Shown: positions 10,951-27,153 of the stretch, piece after piece
How the letters are laid out: every line of letters starts with the position of its first letter
How positions within the stretch are numbered: position 1 is the first letter of the stretch
NCBI RefSeq assembly: GCF_946479975.1
Contig: NZ_CAMLIX010000037.1
Coordinates: forward strand, 1 to 27,203
Length of the DNA: 27,203 bases
Origin: an uncultured Flavobacterium sp.
GTDB lineage: Bacteria; Bacteroidota; Bacteroidia; Flavobacteriales; Flavobacteriaceae
Direction: 5' to 3'
The notes under the pieces: model-generated
Told to the model about the DNA's origin: nothing
The model's database searches: none
Seen by the model: the letters and a program-made list of their open reading frames with translations, nothing else
Translations under genes and position numbers: made by a program

Positions 10951-11418
10951 ATGAAATGGTATGTAGTCTACACCAAACCTAAATGGGAAAAAAGAGCCGC
11001 AGAACAATTAAGCAAGTTTAATATAAACTGCTATTGTCCTGTTATAAAAAAGGTACAGCAAAGATCAGATAGGAAAGTGAAGGTAGAAGTGCCATTGTTT
11101 AACCATTATATATTTGTACAATTAGCAGAAAAAGACAGAAATCTGGTATTTCATTCTCCTGGTGTTGTTCGTTTTTTATTTTGGCTGGGCAGACATGCTG
11201 TTGTAAAAGACCAAGAAATTGAAACAATTAAGGAATGGCTTAATACAGGAGATACGGCTTCGGAAATATCTGTTATGCAATATCAAATTGGAGATAAGAT
11301 ACATTTAAATTCTGGTCCGTTTTGTGATCAAAATGCGGTTGTGAAAGATATTACAAAAACGCACTATGTATTAATTTTAGAATCTTTAGGATATGTTTTA
11401 AAAGTAAAACACAAATAA
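10951..11418 (+). CDS. UpxY-family transcription antiterminator (NusG paralogue)
   Basis: The 155-residue protein starts MKWYVVYTKPKWEKRAAEQL, the typical NGN-domain start of specialised NusG paralogues. It continues through NHYIFVQLAEKDRNLVFHSPGVVRFLFWLGRHAVVKDQEI to about residue 95, and ends with a KOW-type domain (YQIGDKIHLNSGPFCDQNAVVKDITKTHYVLIL). In Bacteroides, UpxY proteins bind RNA polymerase in the 5' leader of a capsule operon and prevent early termination. Here the gene is divergent from the polysaccharide operon, not its first gene. A role in switching on that operon is inference from location. The length is a little shorter than typical UpxY. It ends in front of a bidirectional terminator. 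Confidence 0.87.
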   Translation: MKWYVVYTKPKWEKRAAEQLSKFNINCYCPVIKKVQQRSDRKVKVEVPLFNHYIFVQLAEKDRNLVFHSPGVVRFLFWLGRHAVVKDQEIETIKEWLNTGDTASEISVMQYQIGDKIHLNSGPFCDQNAVVKDITKTHYVLILESLGYVLKVKHK

Positions 11419-12514: not shown

Positions 12515-14698
12515 TTATTGTGTCACCAAAAGCTGTGGGTAAGGGTTTGGCGTTTCATTTATAAGTATAGTGGCAATATTATCTTTCATGTTTACCAGCA
12601 ACTTACTAAAAGCAGTATTTGATTGTAAATTGCTATTTACAAATACACCTTGAGTTAATCCGTAAGTTCTTGCAACTGTTCCTTTAATAGTTGAATTAAG
12701 AATGTAGTTACTCATAAGATAATGTACTGTAGAAGAAAACACTGGAATGTTGTCCTGTAAAGTACAACCTTCCATAAAACTACCTTGTCCTCTAATTATA
12801 GCATCTGTACTCGCATTATTATAGAAATTACAGCTGTATAATGACAAAGGAGCATCTCTTATGATATGAGGCCCTTTATGATTTGTAAAATCGCAATTTG
12901 CGGCGATAGGAAAATTATGCCCAGAAATATCAAAAGCTAAACTATTCCCATCAAACTTACAATTGATCCATGCATTTAAATTATCGGCTCTTGTTGCTTT
13001 CATAGATACTGCAGTTCCGCAATTTAAAAACTGTCCGTTGTAGAAAACAACTTTATCTACATATCCTGCTTCTTTAATAGTATATACCGGATTTGGATCT
13101 TGGAAGAATCCTATATTACAATTCACGAAACTTAAACTATCAAAAAAACAATTGTCTAAACCAAAAATCCTATACAGATGAATGCCATAGTTTTGATTTC
13201 TAAATACGACATATTTTAAATTCGTAAAAGCAATCAAGTCCATTTCATCAGGGGCGTATACTCCAACACTTCCGCCTTGTAATGTCAAATTCGAAAGCAC
13301 AAAATTATTATCGCCTGTTGCAGACTCTGAAAGTGTTATTAAAGGAAAATCGTCTTTTAGACCCACAATAACCGTTTTTCCTGTTCCTGCCCCAATAATT
13401 CCTTTTGTTCCATCTACCGGCATTTTTAAGGTTGAACTAATATAAAAAGTACCTTCTGGAAGTTCTGCAATACCTTTAGTATTTATTAAATTCTGAATAT
13501 AACTGGTATTATCTGTTTTTCCTGATCTGTCAGACGCCCAATTAGGACCTAATGGATCTGGCAATGCTTCCCAAATTGTACGGCTAAATGGTGTATATTT
13601 TGTACCAATGATAGCAGAAGATATAGCCGATGAACCTGAAATAGCCGCGTTCTGAGCTGTTCCGTTTAAAGTAACCTCTTTATCAAGTCCAACTCCACGA
13701 AAATGTGCCTTTAAGTCAAATCCTGTAACAGGTGACGTGCTTCTTTTATAGTCATCATGCTCTCCAACAAAATAAAGTACATTTGTTTTTCCTGCAACTG
13801 ATGGAGCTCCGCTTGTTCCGTCTCCCTGAATAAGTTTATTTAAAAAGAATAAATTGTTGGCAGTAATATCAAAAGTAGGAGTTTGAACTGTAGAATATCC
13901 ATTTCCGCCTCCAAAATCTGTAATCTTTACATTTCCCATGTTCTCCATATATAACATAGGTTTAGTGCCGGTACCGCTAAAATTCCAAGCCTCACTGTCC
14001 AATCCAACAAAAGTCATAGACTGCAGATTATTAATATCTGTAGCATCTCCAGCAGGTGTTAAGAAATTAGAATGTAAATGCACATTCCCATAACTTGGAG
14101 TTATGCTGTTACCTTTCATTACAAGCTGATTGGATGTACCATGTACTTGATGCTTTATGATTTTATTATTTCTAAAATATCCAGATGCACTACAATCAAA
14201 TTGTATGGCACTCATTACATTTATAAATAAATTGTTTTCGATCTGAGCATTAGTCGCTTTAATGGTAGCCCATTTAATTGACTTTAGTGTACAATTAGAA
14301 ATAACTCCACCAGCTTGAAAAGTTATCGTTTTACCATTTGGTAATAAATCCTGCAAAAGCACATTAGTACTTCCGGCTGCAATTGTGATATTAGAAACTG
14401 GACTTAAAGTAGAATATCCATATAATCTCTGATTACTTTTCATGACAATATCTACTCCCGTATAATCTCCTTTTTCTAATCGTACAGAACCATATTTATC
14501 TAACGCAGCTTGTAGAGTTGCCTTTTGCGTTATTGGCAGTAAATAAGCATTAAAATAATCAATCTCTTCCTGCTGATTATTTACTCCAGGTGGTGTCACC
14601 GGCGGAGTAGTCTTGACTGGAGCTTCATCGATCGCATAATGATAATTCTGCGAGAAAACGGCGCTTGTAAAAAGCAAAAAGTAAATTAAATGTTTCAT
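12515..14698 (-). CDS. Exported two-part right-handed beta-helix protein (pectate lyase 3-like)
   Basis: The 727-residue protein begins with a signal peptide (MKHLIYFLLFTSAVFSQ, cleavage likely after residue 16 or 17), then a short proline-rich stretch (about 29-39). Two units follow. Residues about 60-340 have short beta-strand repeats with SNQRLYGY, NNLFFLNKLI and similar coils. Residues about 375-700 begin ASDRSGKTDNTSYIQNLINTKGIAELPEGTFYIS, the classic start of the pectate lyase 3 / phage tailspike-type beta-helix. I see no sure catalytic residues, and no T9SS sorting domain at the C-terminus (INETPNPYPQLLVTQ). Known relatives bind or cleave polysaccharides; a glycan target is inference. 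Its start codon overlaps the stop codon of the gene before it (ATGA), showing coupled translation. Confidence 0.75.
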   Translation of the reverse strand: MKHLIYFLLFTSAVFSQNYHYAIDEAPVKTTPPVTPPGVNNQQEEIDYFNAYLLPITQKATLQAALDKYGSVRLEKGDYTGVDIVMKSNQRLYGYSTLSPVSNITIAAGSTNVLLQDLLPNGKTITFQAGGVISNCTLKSIKWATIKATNAQIENNLFINVMSAIQFDCSASGYFRNNKIIKHQVHGTSNQLVMKGNSITPSYGNVHLHSNFLTPAGDATDINNLQSMTFVGLDSEAWNFSGTGTKPMLYMENMGNVKITDFGGGNGYSTVQTPTFDITANNLFFLNKLIQGDGTSGAPSVAGKTNVLYFVGEHDDYKRSTSPVTGFDLKAHFRGVGLDKEVTLNGTAQNAAISGSSAISSAIIGTKYTPFSRTIWEALPDPLGPNWASDRSGKTDNTSYIQNLINTKGIAELPEGTFYISSTLKMPVDGTKGIIGAGTGKTVIVGLKDDFPLITLSESATGDNNFVLSNLTLQGGSVGVYAPDEMDLIAFTNLKYVVFRNQNYGIHLYRIFGLDNCFFDSLSFVNCNIGFFQDPNPVYTIKEAGYVDKVVFYNGQFLNCGTAVSMKATRADNLNAWINCKFDGNSLAFDISGHNFPIAANCDFTNHKGPHIIRDAPLSLYSCNFYNNASTDAIIRGQGSFMEGCTLQDNIPVFSSTVHYLMSNYILNSTIKGTVARTYGLTQGVFVNSNLQSNTAFSKLLVNMKDNIATILINETPNPYPQLLVTQ

Positions 14699-15423
14699 TG
14701 TCCTGAAATAATATAGGAATTTGTTCCTGTTTTTCTAAGAAACCCAAACCTTACATTTCCTGCTGTACTAGTAAATTTTGCACTTCCAGAAGCAGTGTAA
14801 TTAAGAGCGACACCCGAAGCTGCCTGAATTGTCAATACAGCACCATTATGAGCTTCTAAATTAATAGTTTCGCCTACCAGCATATTATTAAAATCAGAAG
14901 TTAATGTTAAGGTCGATGATGTTGTACATTCTATTGTATTGTTTATATCTGCTACAGCAATATTTCTTGAAGATGTAAACGAAACAATTACAGCTCTACT
15001 TGCTGTTGCAGTTGTTGATCCAGCTGTTTTTGCATACAAAGCAAAAGGAACACTCAAAAGCTGTGTAACTCCAGTAATGTTATAGTTTGTTCCCCCTTTT
15101 ACATCGACTTGTGTTTCTATAAAATAAGGACCTTTATCCCATGCAATTTTACTAAAGTCTCCTGTAACAATTGTTCCTGTTCCAATTTCTAGAGAAACCA
15201 AACCGTTGCTGTTTGTATTTACAGAATGCGTTTCCTGATAAACATTAGTCCCTGTTGCAGCACCTTGATGTACAATAATCTTAAGACTAATTCTGGAGTT
15301 AACGACTAAACTATTATCCTGCGCTCGTATAATAGCCTGATAACTCATTTTTTCAGGTGATTGTGCAAATACCTTAAACGTAACAGTCACAAAAAATAAT
15401 AAAAGGATATGTGCAAGTTTCAT
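14695..15423 (-). CDS. Secreted protein with SPEKMSYQA N-terminal domain
   Basis: The 242-residue protein has a clear signal peptide ending VFAQ (about 1-21), then SPEKMSYQAIIRAQDNSLVVNSRISLKI and ending SVPFALYAKTAGS near 130. This N-terminal domain recurs in many exported Bacteroidota proteins, often before collagen-like or tail-fibre-like regions, and its function is not known. The second half (SRNIAVADINNTIECTTSSTLTLTSDFNNMLVGETINLEAHNGAVLTIQ) looks like a beta-rich domain similar to short domains at the end of phage-fibre-like proteins, judged by eye. It is in the middle of a three-gene operon: 13 bp after the T9SS-domain gene and overlapping the beta-helix gene by 4 bp. It has no sorting domain of its own. 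Confidence 0.72.
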   Translation of the reverse strand: MKLAHILLLFFVTVTFKVFAQSPEKMSYQAIIRAQDNSLVVNSRISLKIIVHQGAATGTNVYQETHSVNTNSNGLVSLEIGTGTIVTGDFSKIAWDKGPYFIETQVDVKGGTNYNITGVTQLLSVPFALYAKTAGSTTATASRAVIVSFTSSRNIAVADINNTIECTTSSTLTLTSDFNNMLVGETINLEAHNGAVLTIQAASGVALNYTASGSAKFTSTAGNVRFGFLRKTGTNSYIISGQ

Positions 15424-15436
15424 CAGATTTCTATTT

Positions 15437-15982
15437 TTAATTTTTAATTATTTTAAATGATTTCAAAATCTGACTATCATTATATACTACTAATATATAG
15501 ATAGACGGACTTAGATAACTGAAGCTCACTTGAGCTTCGGTTTGATTGATTAGATTTTGTTTCAAAAGCCTGCCTTGTATATCGTAGAGCCTATAGGATT
15601 TTTGTCCGTCGAGCTCTAAACCTGTCATGCTTATGTTCACGAAATCAATTGTTGGATTTGGGTATGCAAATATTTCTGTAGTAGGTTTTTCAATATCTGG
15701 AGTATCTAAATTCTTTGCTGCTTCTTGGTGCTGTATCCCTTGCGCTACATTATAAACAGATTCTACCCCAATATAAGTGTAAAAGACTTGCCCAATAGAA
15801 TAAGTTACCGTTCCAGAACTACCAGTTGCATTGCTTCCTGAGGTAATTATGGTTTCCATTATGTCGTTAGAATTTGTGGGCGTCGTCTGGCAAATTCCTA
15901 CAAAAGGAATAAGTAGCATTAATACAATTAGTATGTTGATATTTTTGATTTTTTGATACTTCACAGTCTTACTTATTGACAT
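15437..15982 (-). CDS. Small exported protein with T9SS type A sorting domain
   Basis: A 181-residue protein. An N-terminal signal segment (about 1-32, KNINILIVLMLLIPFVGICQ) is followed by a short domain with GSNATGSSGTVTYSIGQVFYTYIGVESVYNVAQGIQHQ, a pattern repeatedly seen in small Bacteroidota exported proteins. The C-terminal 75 residues form a Por/T9SS type A sorting domain: FAYPNPTIDFVNI, YRLYDIQGRLL, and the final LKSFKIIKN. By family knowledge this sends the protein across the outer membrane by the type IX secretion system, usually followed by removal of the domain and anchoring or release. It is the first gene of the operon. The job of the central part is unknown. Confidence 0.85.
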   Translation of the reverse strand: MSISKTVKYQKIKNINILIVLMLLIPFVGICQTTPTNSNDIMETIITSGSNATGSSGTVTYSIGQVFYTYIGVESVYNVAQGIQHQEAAKNLDTPDIEKPTTEIFAYPNPTIDFVNISMTGLELDGQKSYRLYDIQGRLLKQNLINQTEAQVSFSYLSPSIYILVVYNDSQILKSFKIIKN

Positions 15983-16868
15983 AATTATTTATACTGCAAA
16001 AATATTTAATCTCAAAAAATAATCGATAAAAATATTATTATTTCCGATTAACTACTTAAAATGTAGGGTTTTAATGACTATTTACTTACATTGGAAATGT
16101 TAAATTTATTTTTTAATTCTTAACAAGAACTTAAAATAGACTTAGAGTATATTAATACTTTAAAGAGTAAAGATTAAATATTTTTGGCTTTAGACTAAAC
16201 AAGTTAGTACTACTAAAATAACGATGCTTAATTTGTTAAATTATATCGTTACAAGCTTTTTATTTAATCTTTAAAATGAGGCTGTTTATTATTTCTATTT
16301 CTCAATTATAAGGGGCTTTAATAATTGATTTTTCATTATAACTGACAAAAAAACATATCTCGTTATAAATCAAAAATATAGATTTTACAAAAATAGTTAA
16401 ATATTTTACATTGTCTAAACTTACCTTACTTATTTTAGAAAAAATAATCTTTCCTGAATAAAATTTTCATTAAAAACTGAAATATATAGATTGATAAATC
16501 GAAAACAACTTCAAAAATTTGCTGCTAATTTTTTAATAAAAATTGCCTTATACAATTTAAAATATGCCATTCATCGAGAATAATCGCTTTATATAGAATA
16601 TGCAAGATTTACTGAAAAAAAAATCCTTTTTTTGATCATCTTATTTAAGAATAAGTAAAAAATACCATTTTAATACAGAGCCAAAATAAAAGCCAGAACC
16701 AAATAAAATTCTTACATCCCTTTATTGACGAAGCTGCCAGTTGTACATAAAACAACAATTACTCATCACTAAAAAGCTTTATAACAAAGCTTTATAAGAT
16801 TCTACTTTTAGTTTCAACGCTGATTTTATCACATTATTTTGCTCAACTTTAATTTTAATACCCTTAAA
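15983..16868. promoter_or_regulatory. 886-bp divergent spacer before the biosynthetic cluster
   Basis: A very A/T-rich region between the divergent exported-protein operon and the NRPS-PKS operon, with no credible gene. On the minus strand TATTTTTG at 15997-16004 fits the Bacteroidota -7 box (TAnnTTTG), 15 nt before the T9SS gene start, but no well-spaced TTTG box is found. On the plus strand a 12-bp direct repeat (16773-16797) is listed separately. The rest (about 16010-16770) shows only short, weak inverted repeats. Confidence 0.5.
16773..16797 (+). repeat. 12-bp direct repeat upstream of the NRPS-PKS operon
   Basis: AAAGCTTTATAA occurs twice, separated by one base, so the repeat unit spacing is 13 bp; each copy contains the 8-bp palindrome AAAGCTTT. 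The pair ends 71 nt before the chosen start codon of the NRPS-PKS gene, where an operator or activator site could be. Only the repeat is seen. Confidence 0.45.
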
Positions 16869-19800
16869 ATGAAAAGACCTAATAAAAATAGTTTAGACAA
16901 CATGGGAAATTGGAAAAACATGAGTTATCCTCAAAACGCATTGCATGAGCTTTTTACAAAACAAGCTGAGGCAACTCCAAATTCTATAGCACTTGAATTT
17001 GCAAATAAAAAACTTACCTACAAAGAGTTGTCTGAGACGGTAAATCAAATGGCTAATTACTTTTTGGGTAAAGGTTTATCTGCTGGGCAAATAGTAGCAG
17101 TATCTATGGAGCGAAACACAGATTTAATCGCTTCTCTATTAGCAATTTTACAATGTGGCGCAGCTTATTTACCATTAGATCCAAAATTTCCAAGCGAACG
17201 TTTAGAATTTATGCTGGTAGATTCTGAAGCAAGTTTTTTACTGACTACAGAATCACTTTCAACTACACTGCCAAAAAGTTCTGTAACTCTACTTATAGAA
17301 GAGATATGGTCTTTAATTGATCAATATCCCACTTCCCCATTATCAGTTGATGTCTCAAATAAATCGGTTGCCTATATCATGTATACTTCGGGATCAACTG
17401 GAAAACCTAAAGGCGTAACCGTTACTCATAAAAATTTAGTCAATTTTCTATACAGTATGGCGATTGAGCCCGGTATTGATCCTACAGATAAATTGTTGTC
17501 AATCACTACTATTTCCTTTGATATTGCAGGTTTAGAATTGTTTCTTCCATTAATTACTGGCGCTTCAGTAGTTTTTTCTGACTACGAAACTACTCGAGAC
17601 GGACAATTGTTACTAAATCTTTTACAAGAAAAAGAAATTACAATATTGCAGGCCACTCCTACTACATGGCAAATGCTACTTGATTCGGGCTGGAAAAAAC
17701 CATTAGCTCTAAAAGCGCTTTGCGGAGGTGAAGCGCTGCCTTTGAACCTTGCTCGCCAGTTAACTTCTAAATGTGAATCACTTTGGAATATGTACGGACC
17801 AACTGAAACTACAATTTGGTCTGCTGTAAAAGAGATTAAAAATGATGACGAATTAATTACAATTGGTTTTCCTATCGCTAATACTCAAATTTATCTATTA
17901 GATGAAAATGATAAACCTGTTGAATCTGGAACAATTGGAGAAATCGTTATTGGCGGAGATGGAGTCGCAGAAGGTTATTGGAAACGACCTGAGCTTACTG
18001 CTGAAAAATTTATTCCTGATACATTTTCTGTCAATCCAAATGCTGTTCTTTATCGCACTGGCGATTTAGGAAAACAACTGCCAAATGGAGAGTTTCAATG
18101 TTTAGGACGTATCGATCATCAAGTAAAAATTAGAGGACACCGTATTGAATTGGGCGAAATTGAATCTACTTTAAATACACTTTCGGGCATCAAACAATCT
18201 GCAGTAATTGTAAGTAACCATCTTGGAAACGAAGATAAACTTGTTGCTTATTTAAAATCTGGAGCTCAATTTAAGGATGAAAAACAAATTCACACGGCAC
18301 TTTCCAAAATGTTACCCGAAATCTTACTGCCTTCAAAATATATTTGGGTAGATGAATTTCCGATAACACCAAACGGAAAAATCGACAAAAAGAACTTGCC
18401 TGTTCCTGAATACAATAGACCAGATTCTGCACCTCTTTTCAAAAAACCAACAACTGAATTAGAAAAAGAAATTGCCAAAATTTGGAGTGAAGAATTAAAA
18501 ATAGCAAGCATTGGTATCGATGATGATTTTTTTGATTTGGGAGGGAGTTCTGTACTTGCTCAAAAAGTAACGACTTTAATGAGACAGCAATTATCTAAAG
18601 ATGTTCCTGTTTCAAAAATTTATATTCATCCTACAATTAGAGAATTGGCAGTTACTTTAGAAGAAAACAACAACGATAGTACGACTAAAGAAAATGTTTT
18701 TACATTTAAAAATACGAATGACAAAATAACTTCTTCAGACATTGCAATAATTGGTATGGCAGGAAGATTTCCTGGTTCTGATACTATCGATGAATTATGG
18801 GAAAATCTTAGAGATGGAAAAGAAACAATTTCTTTATTTTCTAAAGAAGAATTAGACAGCAGTTTACCAGAAAGTCTTCGTAATGATCCATTATATATTG
18901 GCGCAAGAGGAGTTCTTTCATCTGCAAAAACATTTGACGCCGCTTTCTTCGGATTAAATCCGCAGTTAGCCGCCGCAATGGATCCTCAAATTCGAATATT
19001 TTTAGAGATTTCTTTTGAGGCTCTGGAACAATCTGGACATTTGCCAAGACATTACAAAGGAACAATTGGAGTATATTCTGGAAGTGAAATCAATTCGTAT
19101 TTTGAGAATAATATTTTTTCGAACCAAGAATTAAAAAGTTCCGTAGGCGATTTACAAATTTATACAGTAAACGGAAAAGATTTTATTGCTCCACGTACTT
19201 CTTATCATTTAAATCTAAAAGGTCCATCTGTCAGCGTTCATTCTGCTTGCTCAACTTCACTTTTAGCAGTTGCAGAAGCTGTAAAAGCAATTAGAGCTGG
19301 CATGTGCGATGTTGCACTTGCAGGAGGATCGAGCGTAACAGCTCCTATAAACAGCGGTCATCTTTATGATGACGGTTTTATCAAAAGTCCAGATGGTTCT
19401 ACCAGATCTTTTGAAGCTTCTGGAAAAGGAACTGTTTTTAGTGACGGAGCTGGAGTTGTTGTACTAAAAAGATTGGAAGAAGCAGAAAAAGATGGAGATA
19501 TAATATACGGAGTAATTAAAGGTGTCGGCGTAAACAACGACGGAGGCGACAAAGGAAGTTTCATGGCTCCGAGTGCTAAAGGACAAGCTGGTGCCATTAT
19601 TAATGCATTTAATGATGCACAAATTTCTCCTTCAACAATCAGCTACATGGAGGCACATGGTACTGCAACACCAATTGGAGACCCAATTGAGATTGAAGGA
19701 CTTAAAATTGCATATGGTAAACAGGAAAAAAACAACTATTGTGCACTTGGTACTATAAAAAGTAACATGGGACATACTACGGCGGCGGCTGGAGTTGCAG

Positions 19801-22181
19801 GTTTGATGAAAATATTATTGGCAATGCGTTACAAAAAAATACCGCCGATGGTAAATTTTACAAAACCAAATCCTAACATAGATTTTGAAAATAGTCCATT
19901 TTTTATCAATAATACTTTAATAGATTGGAAATCTGAAGGTAAAAGAAGAGCTGGTGTGAGTTCGTTTGGAATTGGAAGCACAAATGTTCACGCAATTGTC
20001 GAAGAATACGAATCTAAACCAATTGTTTCTTCAGCTTCGCGACCATTTCAATTACTAATGTGGTCTGCGAAAAACCAAAATAGTTTATTAGCATATGAAA
20101 ATGCATTGGGTCATTTTATTGACAAGTCAAAAGATACCGCTTTAGCAGATATTGCTTATTCGCTAAATACCACTAGAGATGAATTTAATTACCGAAGCTT
20201 TTTAATTTCAAATTCCACAGCCGATGCTTCTGAAAAATTACTTTGTTTAAAAGCCAAAACTACAAAATCTTCAGTTTTAAAAAATTCGCCTTCAGAAATC
20301 GGATTTTTATTTCCTGGCCAAGGATCGCAATATGTGCAAATGGGAAAAACACTTTACGATAACGAAAAAGTTTATCGCGAAGCTGTAGACAAATGTGCAG
20401 AGTTATTAATGGATGAATTAAAATTAGATATTCGTGATATTATTTATCCGAAAAACAAATCTATTGAAGCCGAGGAACTTTTAAAAGATACCAGACTTAC
20501 GCAGCCTTCTTTATTTGTTACAGAATATGCTTTATCGCAATTATGGATGAGCTGGGGCATAAAACCAACTTTTCTTTGTGGTCATAGTATTGGTGAATTT
20601 GCTGCTGCGCATTTAGCAGGAATTCTGAGTTTAAAAGATGCTTTACATATCGTTTCTGTTAGAGGAAGATTAATCAGTGAACTGCCTGGCGGATCCATGT
20701 TAATCGTTCGCGTACCAGTAAATCAGTTAAAAGAATTACTTCCCGATACAATTTCGATTGCTGCTGTAAATTCAACTCAATTTTGTGTTGTTTCAGGAAC
20801 AAAAAAAGATATTTCGGCATTCAACAAAGAACTTGATCTTAAAGAGATTCCAAACAAACTTTTGAATACAAGTCATGCTTTCCATTCTTTTATGATGGAA
20901 CCAATTTTAAATGACTTTAAAAATGAATTAGAAAAAGTAAAATTAAATATTCCTAGATTACCGATTATTTCGACAGCATCGGGAACATGGCTTACAGATA
21001 CTGAAGCAACAAGTACAACATATTGGGTAAACCAGCTGAAAAACACAGTACGATTTGCAGATGCAATGGATACCGCTTTTGAACTGGATAATTTTATATT
21101 ATTAGAAGTTGGTCCCGGCCAGACTCTAACTACGCTAGCTCGTCAACAAGCTGCTGGCAAAATTATACCTGCTTTTACAAGTTTAAATTTTCCTAAAGAT
21201 GAAAATGATAGTGAATATTCTACGCTATTAACTGCTTTGGGCGAATTATGGATGAAAGGTGTAAATCCTGACTGGAAAGCTTTCTATGGCGAACAGCAAA
21301 GACAAAAAATAGAATTACCAAGTTATGTTTTTGATCGTAAGCATTGTTGGATCGATCCTGTAGAAACCATTCAAACAATTGCTATTCAAAAAACAATTGT
21401 TACCGATACTATTATCCCTTCTATTGAAGTTGAAAATAATATTATTAAAACAAATGATTCTAGAAAAGATTCTATTTTAATTGAAATTGCAGAAATCATT
21501 AAAAATGCTTCGGGCATAATATATGAATCTGATGCAATTGAAAACACATTTCTAGAATTAGGTTTAGATTCGCTATCACTCACACAATTATCAGGGAAAC
21601 TGAAAAAAGAGTTCAATTTACCAATTACTTTCAGACAGCTAAATGAAGCTTATTCCTCTCCTTCGCTTTTAGCAGATTACATTGATTTAAACCTTCCTGA
21701 AGAGCGCATATCCAAAAATAAAGCAACTGAAATAACTTCAAACCAAAATGCTGATTCGAATACTTTGCCAGATCCTGTTCAATTATCATCTGCTCAAAGT
21801 CATGTTTCATTAGAGCAAATTGTGCATCAAATTCAGCTTTTGAGTCAGAAAGTCGATCAATTACAAAATTATCAGGCAACATCAGTAAACGGTAATTTCT
21901 CATTTACAAATTTAAAAGCAGAACATTTTGATACAGTTAAATTTACTAATGAACATCATGCCGAGAAAAATGGCACTAACGGGCATGTTAATGGAACCAA
22001 TGGTTTTTCTAAAAAAGAAAAAGAATTAAATGAAGTCAATTCCTTCGTGAAAAAATATACAATAAAAGCGACCGAACCACCAGTACAAGGCAGTAAACTA
22101 GGACGAGATGAAAATGGAAATCCCGCGTGGTTTATTGCAGACCCTAATCAAAATGGAAGTTTTGTAAAGATCAAACTGTAA
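16869..22181 (+). CDS. Hybrid NRPS-PKS, A-PCP-KS-AT-ACP
   Basis: I choose ATG 16869 (MKRPNKNS, 1770 residues); a TTG 30 bp upstream adds ten residues. Domains: adenylation about 20-505 (YTSGSTGKPKG at 172, YGPTETT, specificity code DILQCGMIWK, NGKID), PCP with Ser561 (LGGSS), ketosynthase 624-1050 with Cys794 (SACSTS), His930 (EAHGT) and His969 (NMGHT), acyltransferase about 1150-1480 with Ser1240 (GHSIGE) and HAFH (1336-1339, the malonyl-type motif), ACP with Ser1568 (LGLDSLS). A coiled-coil-like stretch (about 1655-1675) and a tail GRDENGNPAWFIADP end the protein. There is no condensation, reductase, dehydratase or methyl domain. It should load an amino acid, extend it with malonate, and pass a beta-keto amino-acyl chain to the next protein. 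The glycine-like preference is inference from the code. All core active-site residues are intact. Confidence 0.93.
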   Translation: MKRPNKNSLDNMGNWKNMSYPQNALHELFTKQAEATPNSIALEFANKKLTYKELSETVNQMANYFLGKGLSAGQIVAVSMERNTDLIASLLAILQCGAAYLPLDPKFPSERLEFMLVDSEASFLLTTESLSTTLPKSSVTLLIEEIWSLIDQYPTSPLSVDVSNKSVAYIMYTSGSTGKPKGVTVTHKNLVNFLYSMAIEPGIDPTDKLLSITTISFDIAGLELFLPLITGASVVFSDYETTRDGQLLLNLLQEKEITILQATPTTWQMLLDSGWKKPLALKALCGGEALPLNLARQLTSKCESLWNMYGPTETTIWSAVKEIKNDDELITIGFPIANTQIYLLDENDKPVESGTIGEIVIGGDGVAEGYWKRPELTAEKFIPDTFSVNPNAVLYRTGDLGKQLPNGEFQCLGRIDHQVKIRGHRIELGEIESTLNTLSGIKQSAVIVSNHLGNEDKLVAYLKSGAQFKDEKQIHTALSKMLPEILLPSKYIWVDEFPITPNGKIDKKNLPVPEYNRPDSAPLFKKPTTELEKEIAKIWSEELKIASIGIDDDFFDLGGSSVLAQKVTTLMRQQLSKDVPVSKIYIHPTIRELAVTLEENNNDSTTKENVFTFKNTNDKITSSDIAIIGMAGRFPGSDTIDELWENLRDGKETISLFSKEELDSSLPESLRNDPLYIGARGVLSSAKTFDAAFFGLNPQLAAAMDPQIRIFLEISFEALEQSGHLPRHYKGTIGVYSGSEINSYFENNIFSNQELKSSVGDLQIYTVNGKDFIAPRTSYHLNLKGPSVSVHSACSTSLLAVAEAVKAIRAGMCDVALAGGSSVTAPINSGHLYDDGFIKSPDGSTRSFEASGKGTVFSDGAGVVVLKRLEEAEKDGDIIYGVIKGVGVNNDGGDKGSFMAPSAKGQAGAIINAFNDAQISPSTISYMEAHGTATPIGDPIEIEGLKIAYGKQEKNNYCALGTIKSNMGHTTAAAGVAGLMKILLAMRYKKIPPMVNFTKPNPNIDFENSPFFINNTLIDWKSEGKRRAGVSSFGIGSTNVHAIVEEYESKPIVSSASRPFQLLMWSAKNQNSLLAYENALGHFIDKSKDTALADIAYSLNTTRDEFNYRSFLISNSTADASEKLLCLKAKTTKSSVLKNSPSEIGFLFPGQGSQYVQMGKTLYDNEKVYREAVDKCAELLMDELKLDIRDIIYPKNKSIEAEELLKDTRLTQPSLFVTEYALSQLWMSWGIKPTFLCGHSIGEFAAAHLAGILSLKDALHIVSVRGRLISELPGGSMLIVRVPVNQLKELLPDTISIAAVNSTQFCVVSGTKKDISAFNKELDLKEIPNKLLNTSHAFHSFMMEPILNDFKNELEKVKLNIPRLPIISTASGTWLTDTEATSTTYWVNQLKNTVRFADAMDTAFELDNFILLEVGPGQTLTTLARQQAAGKIIPAFTSLNFPKDENDSEYSTLLTALGELWMKGVNPDWKAFYGEQQRQKIELPSYVFDRKHCWIDPVETIQTIAIQKTIVTDTIIPSIEVENNIIKTNDSRKDSILIEIAEIIKNASGIIYESDAIENTFLELGLDSLSLTQLSGKLKKEFNLPITFRQLNEAYSSPSLLADYIDLNLPEERISKNKATEITSNQNADSNTLPDPVQLSSAQSHVSLEQIVHQIQLLSQKVDQLQNYQATSVNGNFSFTNLKAEHFDTVKFTNEHHAEKNGTNGHVNGTNGFSKKEKELNEVNSFVKKYTIKATEPPVQGSKLGRDENGNPAWFIADPNQNGSFVKIKL

Positions 22182-22261
22182 AACCAGATCAGCATAAGAG
22201 ATACTAATATTTTAAATGGGCAATCCCAAAATTGTTCAATTAAATTTAAAATAGGAAAATA

Positions 22262-25200
22262 ATGAAAAACGAACCTCAAATACAAATAGAAATGGAAACT
22301 GAAACTCAAATTCAATTTAGTCCATTTTCACCTGAAATTGAACGAGTAATCCATACCACCAATTCTCAACAGGAGATATGGTCAGATTGCATTTTTGGAG
22401 GCAGTGATGCTAACAAAGCTTACAATCTTTCGGTATCCATTAGGTTTAAAGGAAATTTAGTAATTGATATTTTTGAAAAAGCTGTAAAAACTTTGATTCA
22501 GCGTCATGAAGGTTTAAGAGCTGTTTTTAGTCCAGACGGACGCTTTATGTGTATTTACAGCGATTATAATTATGAGATTTCTCAAAATGATTTTTCTGAT
22601 CTTTCAGCCTCTGAAAAAGAAACCGCTGTTGATGCTTCAGTTCAAGAAGAAGTTAGTAAACTTTTTGATCTTGTTAATGGTCCATTATTTAGAGTTAACG
22701 TAATTAAAATTGATGATTTTGAATATTTATCTGTTTTAACCATTCACCATATTATTGGAGACGGATTAAGCATTGACATTATTTTAGAAGAATTGGGCAC
22801 AATTTATTCGGCATATATTGAAAATAAAGAACCTAAATTACCAACTCCAGAACGTTTTAGTGAATTTGCTGAAAAAATAAATTCAGTAATGGAAAGCAAA
22901 GAGTACAAATCTTTAGAAGATTTTTGGATTAATATTTACAAAGATTCCATACCAACGATTGAATTACCTTTGGATTTCAAAAGACCTTCTTTAAGAACTT
23001 ATAACAGTAATAGAATTGATATTCCTTTAGATGACAGTATTATTAATGAATTAAAAAATGTGGGTATAAATTCAGGATGCAGTTTAGTTACTACTTTATT
23101 GGCTGCTTTTGAAATCTTTTTATCTAAAATTACTGGCCAAACTGATTTGGTTGTAGGATTTCCCTCTTCAGGAAATATCTTGTACGACATGAGACAATTA
23201 ATTGGTGATTGTGCAAATCTTCTTCCTTTACGAAGTAAAATAAATCCAAAAATCAGTTTTACAGAATACTTAAAACAAAGAAATTCAGAATTATTTGATG
23301 CTTATGAACATCAGCAGGTAAGTTTTGGTCATCTTTTAAAAAGTATTCCTATTAATAGAGATCCCTCTAGAATTCCCTTAGTTCCTGTTGTATTTACTGT
23401 TGATCTAGCTCGAACTATAGAAAATGAATTTTCATACAAAGATCTTACCCATAGTTTTAAACCTAATCCAAGACAATATGGAACTTTTGAAATTCAGCTT
23501 CATATTTTTAGAACTAAAGATGGACCTTCATTTCAGTGGCTTTATAACACGACACTTTTTAAACCAGAAACGATAAAACAAATGATGATTTCTTTTGTAG
23601 AAATAATTCAAAAAGTGATATCTGGTTCAAATAATCCGCTATCCGATTTAATTGGCGGAAATTATATTGAAGATTATAACGAGTTGAACAGTACCGAAAT
23701 GCCATACCCAAATGTAACTTTAACTGAGTTACTCAATAAGCAAGCAGAATATACACCAAACAATATAGCCTTAGAATTTCATGACTCAAAAACTACTTAT
23801 TTTGAATTACAACAAAAGGTAAATCAATTCGCTCATTATCTAAAAGCGCAAGGCGTTCAACCTGGTGATTTTATAGCAGTATCATTTCCTAGAAGTCCGG
23901 AACTTCTGTACACTTTACTTGCCATTATGCAATGTGGTGCGGCGTACTTACCACTCGATCCAGAATATCCAAAAGATCGTTTAGAATTTATGTTAAATGA
24001 TTCTGGTGCCAAAATTTTATTAACCAGCAAGGAATTGTTTGCACATTTACCATCATGGTCAAAAATGCTATTTATAGAAGATGCTGTAAATACTTTACAA
24101 GAATATTCTACGGCATCACTTCCTTTCATTACAGATTCAGAAAGCAACGCTTATATACTTTACACATCAGGATCAACTGGTAATCCAAAAGGAGTTCCAA
24201 TTACACATAAAAATCTAGTCAATTTTCTTTGCAGTATGGCAGTTGAGCCTGGCATTAATGAGAACGACAGATTACTCTCTATTACAACAATTTCATTTGA
24301 CATTGCTGGTTTAGAATTATATCTACCTTTAATTAAGGGAGCCACTTTGATATTAGCTGATCATGAAACCGCCAGAGATGGAAGACTATTACTAGAATTA
24401 GTAAAAAAAGCAAAAATTAACTTTTTACAAGCTACTCCAACAACTTGGTCAATGCTACTCGATTCTGGATGGTCAGAAAAATTACCAATTAAAGCATTAT
24501 GTGGTGGCGAGGCAATGCCAGTAGATCTTGCACAAGAACTTTTGATTAAATGTGATACACTTTGGAATGTATATGGTCCAACAGAAACTACCGTTTGGTC
24601 TACTATAAAACAAATAAAAAGTGATGATAACACTATTACTATTGGAAAACCAATAGGGAACACACAAATTTATATAGTCGATGAGCAAGGTCAATTAGTT
24701 GCTCCAGGAAACATCGGAGAAATTATAATTGGTGGCGATGGTGTTGCAAAAGGATATTGGAACAGACCCGAACTAAGTGCTGAAAAATTTATTAAAAACA
24801 CAATTACGGCGAATGAAGAAGAAATACTTTATCGTACAGGAGATTTAGGAAAATTACTTCCCAACAGCGAAATAGAATGCTTAGGCCGTCTAGATCAGCA
24901 GGTAAAAATTAGAGGTCATCGTATTGAGCCAGGAGAAGTAGAACAGGCTTTATTAGCTCTTGATGGAATAAAATCTGCAGTAGTATTAGCAGATGAAAAC
25001 TTTCTTATAGCGCATATTGTTCCATATTCCAGTTTGAACGAAGCTGAAATTCAGATTCCATTGTGGAGAGAAAGTCTATCTTCAAGATTACCAGCTCAAT
25101 TAATTCCGCATGATTTTAATCTGCTAGAAAAAATTCCAACAACTCTAAACGGAAAAATAGACCGTAAGACATTATCGCATTATAAGGCAAACAAAAAAAT

Positions 25201-26272
25201 CACATTTACTGCACCACGAACAGAAGAAGAAAATATTGTAGCTTCTATTTGGAAAGAAAGCTTAGGCATTGATAACATCGATATTTTTAGTAATTTTTTC
25301 GAAATGGGAGGTCATTCTATCAAAGGTGTAAAAGTAATGATTGAGATAGAAAAATATACTGGTAAACGAATTCCGTTATCTGCCCTATTCAAATATTCAA
25401 CAGTTGAGAAGTTTGCTAAACTCTTGAATACCGGCACCGAAATTTATTCAGATTGTCTAGTTCCTATAAAACCTACAGGAAATAAAGTACCGCTTTTTAT
25501 CGTTCATGGCGCAGGATTGAATGTATTAAACTTCGTAAATCTTAGTAAACATTTCGATGAAGACCAGCCTGTTTACGGTATCCAAGGCATTAAACCAAAA
25601 GGATTTAATGGATGGTATGAATCTATTGAAGCTATGGCTGCCTATTATATTGATGCCATTATTAAGGTAAACCCAAAAGGTCCATACGCATTGGCAGGAT
25701 TCTCATTCGGCGGTATTGTCGCTTTTGAAATGACACGCCAATTAAGAGCGCAAGGTAAAACAGTAAGTATGACTGCATTACTAGATTCTTATGTCGATTC
25801 TTCATATTACTATGGAAATTTCAGACGAAAACAACTTGTTAGATACATGGATATTACATACAGGAGATTAGATTTTTTAAAAGAAATGTTATTAAGTTGG
25901 AAAGCTTTCAAAATGAGAATTAACGGAAAAAAAGAACACATCCTTCATAGATATCTTGGCAAGAAAAAAATAATGACAGAACATGAAGAATTAGCTTTAG
26001 AGCAATTTATAGAGGCCGATGGTATGGTCAAAAAAATTGTAGATCTTTATCATCTTAAGCCACAAAATTTTGAAGTTGACCTATTTAGATCCAAAGATGA
26101 TGACAACTATAAATTAGATCCAACGCATTTAGGATGGAAAAAAGCCGCTTTAGGAGGAGTTACTATTCATAATATTTCGGGCAACCATTTAAATATAGTG
26201 GCGCCGCCGAATGACAGAGTATTAGCAAAATTAATTCAAGACATTTTAGATGAGAAACATGAAAACATCTAA
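22262..26272 (+). CDS. NRPS, C-A-PCP-TE
   Basis: This 1336-residue protein starts 80 bp after the hybrid gene; AGGA lies 5 nt before the ATG, an unusually good ribosome site here. Domains: condensation about 20-460 (PFSPEIERVIHTTNSQQEIW start as in C domains that follow PKS modules; catalytic HHIIGDG at 162-168), adenylation about 480-965 (YTSGSTGNPKG near 631, Asp680, code DILQCGVVWK), PCP with Ser1019 (MGGHS), thioesterase about 1070-1330 with Ser1148 in GFSFGG. The C domain should join the beta-keto chain from the ACP to a second amino acid; the TE releases the product by hydrolysis or cyclisation. The A domain is strikingly like that of the first protein. There is no epimerase or methyl domain. 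The gene overlaps the next by 23 bp. Confidence 0.93.
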   Translation: MKNEPQIQIEMETETQIQFSPFSPEIERVIHTTNSQQEIWSDCIFGGSDANKAYNLSVSIRFKGNLVIDIFEKAVKTLIQRHEGLRAVFSPDGRFMCIYSDYNYEISQNDFSDLSASEKETAVDASVQEEVSKLFDLVNGPLFRVNVIKIDDFEYLSVLTIHHIIGDGLSIDIILEELGTIYSAYIENKEPKLPTPERFSEFAEKINSVMESKEYKSLEDFWINIYKDSIPTIELPLDFKRPSLRTYNSNRIDIPLDDSIINELKNVGINSGCSLVTTLLAAFEIFLSKITGQTDLVVGFPSSGNILYDMRQLIGDCANLLPLRSKINPKISFTEYLKQRNSELFDAYEHQQVSFGHLLKSIPINRDPSRIPLVPVVFTVDLARTIENEFSYKDLTHSFKPNPRQYGTFEIQLHIFRTKDGPSFQWLYNTTLFKPETIKQMMISFVEIIQKVISGSNNPLSDLIGGNYIEDYNELNSTEMPYPNVTLTELLNKQAEYTPNNIALEFHDSKTTYFELQQKVNQFAHYLKAQGVQPGDFIAVSFPRSPELLYTLLAIMQCGAAYLPLDPEYPKDRLEFMLNDSGAKILLTSKELFAHLPSWSKMLFIEDAVNTLQEYSTASLPFITDSESNAYILYTSGSTGNPKGVPITHKNLVNFLCSMAVEPGINENDRLLSITTISFDIAGLELYLPLIKGATLILADHETARDGRLLLELVKKAKINFLQATPTTWSMLLDSGWSEKLPIKALCGGEAMPVDLAQELLIKCDTLWNVYGPTETTVWSTIKQIKSDDNTITIGKPIGNTQIYIVDEQGQLVAPGNIGEIIIGGDGVAKGYWNRPELSAEKFIKNTITANEEEILYRTGDLGKLLPNSEIECLGRLDQQVKIRGHRIEPGEVEQALLALDGIKSAVVLADENFLIAHIVPYSSLNEAEIQIPLWRESLSSRLPAQLIPHDFNLLEKIPTTLNGKIDRKTLSHYKANKKITFTAPRTEEENIVASIWKESLGIDNIDIFSNFFEMGGHSIKGVKVMIEIEKYTGKRIPLSALFKYSTVEKFAKLLNTGTEIYSDCLVPIKPTGNKVPLFIVHGAGLNVLNFVNLSKHFDEDQPVYGIQGIKPKGFNGWYESIEAMAAYYIDAIIKVNPKGPYALAGFSFGGIVAFEMTRQLRAQGKTVSMTALLDSYVDSSYYYGNFRRKQLVRYMDITYRRLDFLKEMLLSWKAFKMRINGKKEHILHRYLGKKKIMTEHEELALEQFIEADGMVKKIVDLYHLKPQNFEVDLFRSKDDDNYKLDPTHLGWKKAALGGVTIHNISGNHLNIVAPPNDRVLAKLIQDILDEKHENI

Positions 26273-27050
26273 GCTATCTATCTCTTTTTCAGATGTAAAA
26301 AGTGCAGAACCAATTCCTTATAAAAAGCATTTTTTAGAAAGTGATGATATCATAATATATACCATTTACTTACCCAATTTTACTAATTTAAAATCAGATT
26401 TGTCCAAATTTTTAAGTGACAAAGAAATTAAAAAATCACAACGATATTATAAAGAATCAGATACCAATCGTTTTATAATATATAGATCAATATTAAAAAT
26501 CATTTTGGCGGCACACACCAATCTGCGTTTAAAAGATGTGTATTTTGATTATAACTTTAATAAAAAGCCATATCTAATTTCTCATCCATGGCTTCATTTT
26601 AATGTGTCGCATTCCGAAGATTTCGCTGCTATTGCAGTTTCTCGAAAAAAAGTGGGATTAGATATTGAATACATGTCAAATGATTTCAAATTTACAACCT
26701 TACTTCCAGATGTTTTTGAAGATAATGAAGTATTGCAAATTCAAAATTCAGAGAATATAAAACATGCATTCTACACGTCGTGGACACGTAAGGAAGCATT
26801 TGTAAAAGCATTAGGTAAAGGTATCGATGAGGATTTCAAAAATCTTCCTAGTTTAGATGGACAATATCATATCGATTCTACATTGCTAAGAAATACACAG
26901 AACTGGCAAGTTTATAGTTTTGATTTTACTGAAAACTATTTAGGAGCTGTCGCCTTTGAAGATTTACCTGAAATTTCTAAAAGCATAATGTTATACACCA
27001 TTCCCAATAATTTGGAAGAACTACTTGAAATGGTTACAAAAAAAGATTAA
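26250..27050 (+). CDS. Sfp-type 4'-phosphopantetheinyl transferase
   Basis: The 266-residue protein converts apo carrier proteins to the holo form by moving 4'-phosphopantetheine from CoA to the carrier serine. It shows the Sfp-type motifs: RFIIYRSILKIIL near 74-86, HFNVSHSEDFAAIAV near 116-130, VGLDIE at 135-140 (metal-binding Asp138 and Glu140) and WTRKEAFVKALGKG at 178-191 (Glu182, Lys186). It starts inside the end of the NRPS gene; a second ATG three codons later (MKTSKLS) is possible. The overlap shows coupled expression, and the three carrier domains of the two synthetases are its obvious substrates. It may be the genome's broad-range Sfp enzyme as well. Confidence 0.93.
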   Translation: MRNMKTSKLSISFSDVKSAEPIPYKKHFLESDDIIIYTIYLPNFTNLKSDLSKFLSDKEIKKSQRYYKESDTNRFIIYRSILKIILAAHTNLRLKDVYFDYNFNKKPYLISHPWLHFNVSHSEDFAAIAVSRKKVGLDIEYMSNDFKFTTLLPDVFEDNEVLQIQNSENIKHAFYTSWTRKEAFVKALGKGIDEDFKNLPSLDGQYHIDSTLLRNTQNWQVYSFDFTENYLGAVAFEDLPEISKSIMLYTIPNNLEELLEMVTKKD

Positions 27051-27117: not shown

Positions 27118-27148
27118 AAAATCCTCATCAGATAATGATGAGGATTTT
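27118..27148 (-). terminator. Intrinsic terminator of the rRNA operon
   Basis: A perfect 12-bp inverted repeat (27118-27129 with 27137-27148) with a 7-nt loop. In the minus direction it follows the 5S rRNA end by 5 nt and is followed by a T-rich run (complement of 27111-27120). It may also end the converging NRPS-PPTase transcript, whose stop codon is 68 nt away. Confidence 0.92.
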
Positions 27149-27153
27149 AAAAG

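What the first reader, a model, noticed from the sequence alone, without database searches (positions are those of the whole stretch)
16869..27050. Compact, apparently complete NRPS-PKS cluster predicted to make a small beta-ketoamide
Three coupled genes give A-PCP-KS-AT-ACP, C-A-PCP-TE and their own phosphopantetheinyl transferase. All active-site residues that I could check are present. A divergent exported-protein operon on the left and a converging rRNA operon on the right bound the cluster, leaving no room for regulators, exporters or tailoring enzymes. With no reductive domain, the expected chain is amino acid - malonate unit with free beta-ketone - amino acid. I do not recognise a known product with this exact pair of proteins in Bacteroidota.
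Basis: partly seen in the sequence, partly recalled or inferred. Interest (0 to 1): 0.78.

Follow-up and report, generated by a model that had tools for sequence, protein, structure and literature searches.

The report
Stripped-down flavobacterial NRPS-PKS lacking its aminotransferase
A three-gene assembly line in Flavobacterium is predicted to join two small amino acids (probably glycines) through a two-carbon unit that keeps a reactive ketone, because an amine-installing domain found in many of its relatives has been lost; the exact product is unknown.

Summary
Three coupled genes encode A-PCP-KS-AT-ACP, C-A-PCP-TE and a phosphopantetheinyl transferase, with the checked active sites intact and under purifying selection; a converging 5S rRNA end lies on the right. 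The pair is not unique: 57 of the 120 homologues listed for gene 1 are close (71-86% identity), Flavobacterium wherever an organism is named. The window protein keeps ACP and tail but lacks the AMT; none close was found in trans in nine relatives' genomes. Trees indicate at least two, best three, independent losses, plus one recombination that brought an AMT-less ACP-linker into an AMT-type gene. This supports the free beta-ketone and explains its origin. Both adenylation codes are glycine-like, suggesting 4-amino-3-oxobutanoyl-glycine or a cyclised form. The divergent exported operon accompanies the cluster in 11 of 12 sampled Flavobacterium genomes, but elsewhere lies mostly in polysaccharide loci without it, so it is probably a neighbour. 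New variant of a known kind; moderate interest. MIBiG/antiSMASH could not be run.

The parts
16839..22181 (+). Gene 1, hybrid synthetase A-PCP-KS-AT-ACP-linker-tail (likely start ATG 16869)
   Evidence: close homologues; dN/dS 0.087 against L122
16953..18398 (+). A1 domain, code DILQCGMIWK (glycine-like)
   Evidence: code positions (PheA numbering recalled)
18468..18650 (+). PCP1
   Evidence: Ser in 140 of 140 rows
18735..20207 (+). KS with C-terminal extension; Cys/His/His present
20304..21260 (+). AT, GHSxG and HAFH (malonyl-type; motif meaning recalled)
21471..21668 (+). ACP (Ser 1578 of the TTG-started protein)
21669..22178 (+). Linker and conserved C-terminal tail (PPVQGSKLGRDENGNPAWF...); AMT-bearing relatives carry about 430 more residues between them
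   Evidence: alignment
22262..26272 (+). Gene 2, C-A-PCP-TE
   Evidence: dN/dS 0.068
22403..23650 (+). C domain, HHIIGDG
23735..25177 (+). A2 domain, code DILQCGVVWK (glycine-like)
25238..25426 (+). PCP2
25490..26224 (+). TE, Ser/Asp/His triad
26250..27050 (+). Gene 3, Sfp/HetI-like 4'-phosphopantetheinyl transferase (HetI model matched below its cut-off)
   Evidence: dN/dS 0.036
27120..27149 (.). Inverted repeat followed by a T run: possible terminator between gene 3 and the 5S gene
   Evidence: read directly; not scored
27155..27203 (-). 3' end of a 5S rRNA gene, cut by the window end
   Evidence: sequence; same motif in the 5S gene of L012
15437..15982 (-). u1, small exported protein with T9SS C-terminal sorting domain; divergent neighbour, probably not a pathway gene
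14695..15423 (-). u2, exported by the look of its N-terminus, weak match to a fibre N-terminal domain (below cut-off); neighbour
12515..14698 (-). u3, predicted beta-helix protein, weakly like polysaccharide lyases and tailspikes; neighbour

Best explanation
This is a complete, minimal two-protein hybrid assembly line. A1 loads an amino acid (probably glycine) on PCP1; KS and AT extend it by one malonate-derived C2 unit on the ACP; nothing then reduces or aminates the beta-ketone, because the PLP aminotransferase that many relatives carry after the ACP has been lost from this lineage; the chain passes across the tail/C-domain interface and is condensed with a second amino acid (probably glycine) on PCP2; the TE releases it; gene 3 arms the carriers. 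The expected core is 4-amino-3-oxobutanoyl-glycine (C6H10N2O4, 174.064), an alpha-amino-ketone that may appear as a cyclised or self-condensed form. Shown: gene content, domain order, intact catalytic residues, purifying selection, AMT absence and its phylogeny. Inferred: substrates, order of transfer, release chemistry, product.
For: Domains; active sites in 77 AMT-less and 63 AMT-bearing gene-1 rows and 47 gene-2 rows; dN/dS 0.04-0.09. AMT between ACP and tail in relatives, absent here with the tail kept. KS-AT trees: AMT-bearing outgroup, AMT-less rows in several places (4 changes in 83 rows; without the recombinants, 30 rows: 3 changes, 2 forced by starred branches; one clade rejected, p-AU 3.7e-61). 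In trans: of 14 genomes searched with an AMT domain, the nine AMT-less ones other than G002 and G003 had only matches of 33% identity or less, as had G009 without the cluster; G002 has its own AMT-type gene 1 and G003 a 44% match in a 6,543-aa frame. No AMT, methyltransferase, cupin or Rce1-like relative of those in AMT-type loci in the 24 loci L001-L024. C domains that follow the main AMT-less gene 1 form one 100/100 clade on a long stem. Gly codes: DILQLGMIWK (A1 agrees at 9 of 10, A2 at 7 of 10) and DILQLGVI (both at 6 of 8), with 12 codes covering 83 of 93 Gly domains said to vary at 299, 322 and 330, just where the window codes depart (passages of PMC12283262 and PMC5466765). A PKS-embedded AMT is held to make the beta-amino group of puwainaphycins and iturins (passages of PMC4219810).
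Against: Both window codes have Cys at 299, a residue not seen in the Gly codes that I read, so another small substrate is possible. No metabolite is known. The TE cannot be told apart as hydrolase or cyclase by sequence. F. aquicola has two successive C-A-PCP-TE genes (L022), which a simple two-module reading does not explain. The C domain behind the independently AMT-less gene of L168 does not join the AMT-less C clade, and one C domain of a mixed array (L115) does.
Confidence: 0.6

Rival explanations
1. The line makes a tetramic acid: either the TE acts as Dieckmann cyclase on the beta-keto-amide thioester (3-glycyl-tetramate, C6H8N2O3, 156.053), or the free glycine amine lactamises on the ACP to pyrrolidine-2,4-dione.
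For: An unreduced beta-keto unit followed by C-A-PCP is the usual precursor of tetramates; a Gly-derived tetramate with a similar A code is nocamycin (passages of PMC5466765). A free alpha-amine is placed for five-ring closure (inference).
Against: Nocamycin uses a separate Dieckmann cyclase; no further gene lies between u1 and the 5S end here. The same TE family serves AMT-type lines (38-66% identity), whose beta-amino chains are not Dieckmann substrates (inference).
Confidence: 0.25
2. The ketone is modified in trans by an enzyme coded elsewhere, so the product is not a beta-ketone.
For: Trans-acting tailoring is common in hybrid lines (general knowledge); AMT-type loci often have a methyltransferase or Cupin_8/JmjC gene near.
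Against: None of these in the 24 loci L001-L024; no close AMT in nine genomes; the AMT loss recurs. Reductases elsewhere in the genome were not searched.
Confidence: 0.1
3. Genes 1-3 and the divergent operon u1-u3 form one surface system in which the small molecule decorates or regulates an exopolysaccharide.
For: u3 in 11 of the 12 Flavobacterium genomes with gene 1 and in 1 of 187 others (Fisher p 4e-16, not corrected for kinship); divergent, 634-1064 bp apart, in 24 of 24 loci; u-genes near the cluster also in G341 (20 kb) and G373 (u1/u2 kind only); u3 fold weakly like polysaccharide lyases and epimerases.
Against: u1-u3 occur without genes 1-3 in G009, G203, G238, G390, G408 and G548, mostly beside glycosyltransferase or gmd genes. 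Of 13 family-level genomes with an AMT-type gene 1, only G341 had u3. A chromosomal site inherited together explains the link.
Confidence: 0.07
4. Loss of the AMT made the line non-functional.
For: A missing domain relative to kin.
Against: dN/dS 0.04-0.09, intact active sites and a whole clade without AMT.
Confidence: 0.03

Closest known systems
AMT-bearing A-PCP-KS-AT-ACP-AMT / C-A-PCP-TE lines of Flavobacteriaceae (48 of P0058-P0120; loci L154, L158-L167; product unknown)
   Same: Same gene pair, PPTase gene seen in 7 of the 11 family-level loci, 54-61% identity over gene 1, same C-terminal tail, mostly Gly-like A2
   Different: They carry the AMT and mostly another A1 code (DAMWIGIVCK in 38 of 62 rows); 8 of the 11 loci have a methyltransferase gene near
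Iturin/mycosubtilin and puwainaphycin beta-amino-acyl PKS-NRPS
   Same: PKS module feeding an NRPS module; in the AMT-bearing relatives also a class-III aminotransferase (passages of PMC4219810)
   Different: Fatty-acyl start instead of amino acid, long peptide; the window lacks the AMT
Tetramate PKS-NRPS (nocamycin, tirandamycin)
   Same: beta-keto chain condensed with glycine by C-A-PCP (passages of PMC5466765)
   Different: Long polyketide and a separate Dieckmann cyclase; here an amino acid starter and a C-terminal TE
Flavobacterium NRPS-PKS cluster needed for Rhizoctonia suppression (BGC298; Carrion et al. 2019, original not seen)
   Same: Genus and class of cluster; several hosts of the window type bear plant- or root-related names

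Membership tests
Hybrid NRPS-PKS assembly line | NRPS (A, PCP, C) and type I PKS (KS, AT, ACP) modules with intact catalytic residues in one operon | tested here: met
Hybrid NRPS-PKS assembly line | Chain-terminating domain and carrier activation | tested here: met
   TE and PPTase
beta-Amino-acyl PKS-NRPS (AMT type) | Class-III aminotransferase after the ACP | tested here: not met
   absent in the window; present in 63 of 141 rows
beta-Amino-acyl PKS-NRPS (AMT type) | Common ancestry with the AMT-bearing lines of Flavobacteriaceae | tested here: met
Tetramate synthetase | Dieckmann cyclase or cyclising release domain | tested here: inconclusive
   no separate cyclase gene in the operon; TE type cannot be told
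Glycine-activating A domains | Code like DILQLGMIWK | tested here: inconclusive
   A1 agrees at 9 of 10 and A2 at 7 of 10 positions; Cys at 299 in both
BGC298 | Sequence identity with the published cluster | not testable with these tools
   name and role only in passages of PMC7912845 and PMC7680756
Any MIBiG-characterised cluster | Match to a cluster with known product | not testable with these tools
   no MIBiG or antiSMASH available

The most novel reading that the evidence does not exclude
Flavobacteria switch one small assembly line between a beta-amine and a free alpha-amino-beta-ketone product by deleting the AMT, or by recombining in an AMT-less ACP-linker, several times independently, with C-domain divergence following in the main clade. 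The AMT-less line makes a reactive alpha-aminoketone dipeptide mimic (self-condensing to a pyrazine, or a minimal tetramate) that could be the plant-protective metabolite of root Flavobacterium.
Probability: 0.15. Interest if true: 0.72.

Novelty: new variant of a known kind. Interest (0 to 1): 0.45.

Why it matters
It is a natural series of closely related synthetases in which one domain has been removed more than once with its flanks preserved: a ready-made guide to where an aminotransferase can be cut out of a hybrid line and what the downstream condensation domain must tolerate. The two-module size makes reconstitution feasible. The cluster recurs in soil and plant Flavobacterium, and my literature searches showed no product for it.

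Tried and rejected
The idea that u1-u3 are pathway genes was tried because of the 11-of-12 co-occurrence; it was set back when u1-u3 were found without genes 1-3, mostly in polysaccharide loci. A single AMT loss was rejected. Counting the P0059/P0064/P0065/P0067/P0070 group as a further loss was rejected because its A-PCP-KS-AT part is AMT-type and its ACP and linker are of the main AMT-less type. An in-trans AMT was searched for and not found in nine genomes. A first AMT label by a short motif mislabelled some rows and was replaced by BLAST; one search used another motif and mislabelled L025. One search left six rows out as duplicates, cut rows or outgroup (listed in its script) and kept 5 of the 57 close homologues; one search used 30 chosen rows. 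In one search a naming slip split the labels; the tree, not its change counts, was used. The 'PCP1 Ser' line looked at the neighbouring residue and was corrected. PDB sequence search of the TE gave no release type. Literature: in the listings I saw no description of this gene pair; searches returned nothing; only passages of six papers were read, and most subscription papers are not in the library.

Full report
Check of the observation. Gene 3 overlaps gene 2 by 23 bases. The window ends inside what reads as a converging 5S rRNA gene. Rfam reports nothing in the window, presumably because only about 50 bases are present; the motif, with one mismatch, is inside a complete 5S gene downstream of the cluster in L012. 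L001 gave none.

It is real and selected. The catalytic residues checked are conserved in 140 gene-1 rows (77 AMT-less, 63 AMT-bearing) and 47 gene-2 rows, apart from one Tyr in the HAFH motif and one cut gene-2 row. dN/dS against L122 is 0.087, 0.068 and 0.036 for genes 1-3.

Distribution. The protein search scored 7,996 candidates and listed the best 120 of 7,547; 57 of these are 71-86% identical over 98-100% of gene 1, and where an organism is named it is Flavobacterium. One search gave 51 loci. In 24 of them (L001-L024) gene 1 is followed by gene 2 and preceded by u1-u2-u3 on the other strand; 23 of 24 have gene 3 in the piece held, and in L009 further synthetase genes follow instead. In a draw of 199 genomes of the genus, 12 matched gene 1 at E 1e-250: 8 AMT-less, 3 AMT-type (one cut by a contig end) and one (G079, 39% identity) of another kind.

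The missing aminotransferase. Of the 63 listed homologues beyond the close set, 48 carry an AMT. Alignment puts it between the linker after the ACP and the tail PPVxGxKLGRDENGNPAWF; the window protein goes straight from linker to tail. P0096 keeps a stretch (TTEEKQDHKKPLEASPR) that in AMT-bearing proteins precedes the AMT, so there the direction is loss. The quick KS-AT tree of 83 rows (59 AMT, 24 without), rooted on an AMT-bearing Pedobacter protein, needs 4 changes, all forced by starred branches; the tool warns that stars of quick trees deserve less trust when long rows are present. One of the four AMT-less groups (P0059, P0064, P0065, P0067, P0070) is a recombinant: A to AT are closer to AMT-type proteins, ACP and linker closer to the window clade. 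With that group out, a careful tree of 30 chosen rows needs 3 changes, 2 forced, and a single AMT-less clade is rejected (lnL difference 213, p-AU 3.7e-61). In 14 genomes searched with an AMT domain, nine AMT-less ones, and G009 without the cluster, had only matches at 33% identity or less; G002 has its own AMT-type gene 1 and G003 a 44% match inside a 6,543-aa frame; the rest are AMT-type. The window's own genome could not be searched. The C domains behind the main AMT-less gene 1 form one 100/100 clade on a long stem; it also holds one C domain of the mixed F. micromati array (L115), and the independently AMT-less L168 does not join it.

Substrates. By alignment to window positions (PheA numbering recalled), A1 reads DILQCGMIWK and A2 DILQCGVVWK. 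By the labels, DILQCGM(I/V)WK is the A1 code in 64 of 78 rows labelled AMT-less (one of them, L025, mislabelled); of 62 AMT-bearing rows 3 have DILQCGMIWK and 38 DAMWIGIVCK. A2 is DILQ-type in 38 of 47 rows. Against the Gly code DILQLGMIWK, A1 agrees at 9 and A2 at 7 of 10 positions. A passage of PMC12283262 says that 12 Gly codes covering 83 of 93 domains vary at 299, 322 and 330, the positions where the window codes depart; a passage of PMC5466765 gives DILQLGVI for Gly. Two glycines is therefore the best guess, not a demonstration; Cys at 299 was in none of the Gly codes that I saw.

Mechanism. Load, extend by malonate (HAFH-type AT, motif meaning recalled), keep the ketone, condense, release; no reductive, aminating or exporting function is coded in the operon. 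The released alpha-aminoketone could stay linear, cyclise to a tetramate or self-condense to a pyrazine; the sequence does not decide.

Surroundings. u1-u2-u3 co-occur with gene 1 in the genus: 11 genomes with both, 1 with gene 1 only (G079), 1 with u3 only (G009), 186 with neither (Fisher p 4e-16 without correction for kinship). Against a functional link, u-genes occur without the synthetases in G009, G203, G238, G408, G548 and twice in G390 (once u3 alone); neighbours tested by Pfam are glycosyltransferases (L150, L152, L155, L157) or GDP-mannose dehydratase (L118, L151), while the second G390 place (L156) showed no sugar gene in what I saw. Of 13 family-level genomes with an AMT-type gene 1, only G341 had u3. 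The u3 model (mean pLDDT 84.5) reads as two beta-helices with weak matches to polysaccharide lyases, glucanases and tailspikes (TM-score 0.17-0.29 by query length in the 20 matches at E 0.001 or better). An UpxY-type antiterminator gene lies near. I read the left operon as part of the polysaccharide locus.

Known or not. In the listings I saw no description of this pair; searches found nothing. A survey of 2,680 genomes reports 41 PKS/NRPS hybrid families specific to Flavobacterium (passages of PMC10734526; genome number from its abstract), which may include it. A Flavobacterium NRPS-PKS cluster is reported as essential for suppression of Rhizoctonia by a root consortium (passage of PMC7680756; name BGC298 in a passage of PMC7912845; the original paper was not seen). 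Whether it is this cluster is open. Scores: new variant of a known kind, interest 0.45.

Noticed in passing
L115/L116 (G002:C26), F. micromati: Tandem array: AMT-less gene 1, C-A-PCP-TE, AMT-type gene 1, two more C-A-PCP-TE genes and the PPTase; both chemistries side by side next to u1-u3.
   Followed up: partly
L022 15426-24405 (F. aquicola; same as L117): Two successive C-A-PCP-TE genes after one gene 1, each with its own TE; how two terminating modules share one line is unexplained.
   Followed up: no
L120, L121, L162, L167: A Cupin_8/JmjC-type hydroxylase gene lies between or near the AMT-type synthetase genes (Pfam on L121 and L162 only); all four have the A1 code DVQF(T/A)GQ-CK, which recalls proline codes (resemblance recalled). 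L161 has the code without the gene in the 20 kb seen.
   Followed up: partly
L158-L164, L166: A SAM methyltransferase-like gene close to AMT-type gene 1 in 8 of 11 family-level AMT-type loci (Pfam on L158 only), not found in L001-L024.
   Followed up: partly
P0059, P0062, P0064, P0065, P0067, P0070: Mosaic gene-1 proteins: some domains nearer AMT-type, others nearer AMT-less proteins, pointing to recombination between the two kinds.
   Followed up: partly
window 12515-15982 and L120, L151, L152, L153, L157: u1-u2-u3 triad; u3 longer than in the window in some genomes, with fibronectin III repeats in L120 and L152 and a GDSL lipase-like domain in L152. u3 differs more than its neighbours between close strains (dN/dS 0.33).
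   Followed up: partly
window 10951-11418: UpxY-family transcription antiterminator gene beside genes that resemble rfaE, manC, fcl and gmd by their place and the labels I gave them; the same order recurs in most of L001-L024.
   Followed up: partly
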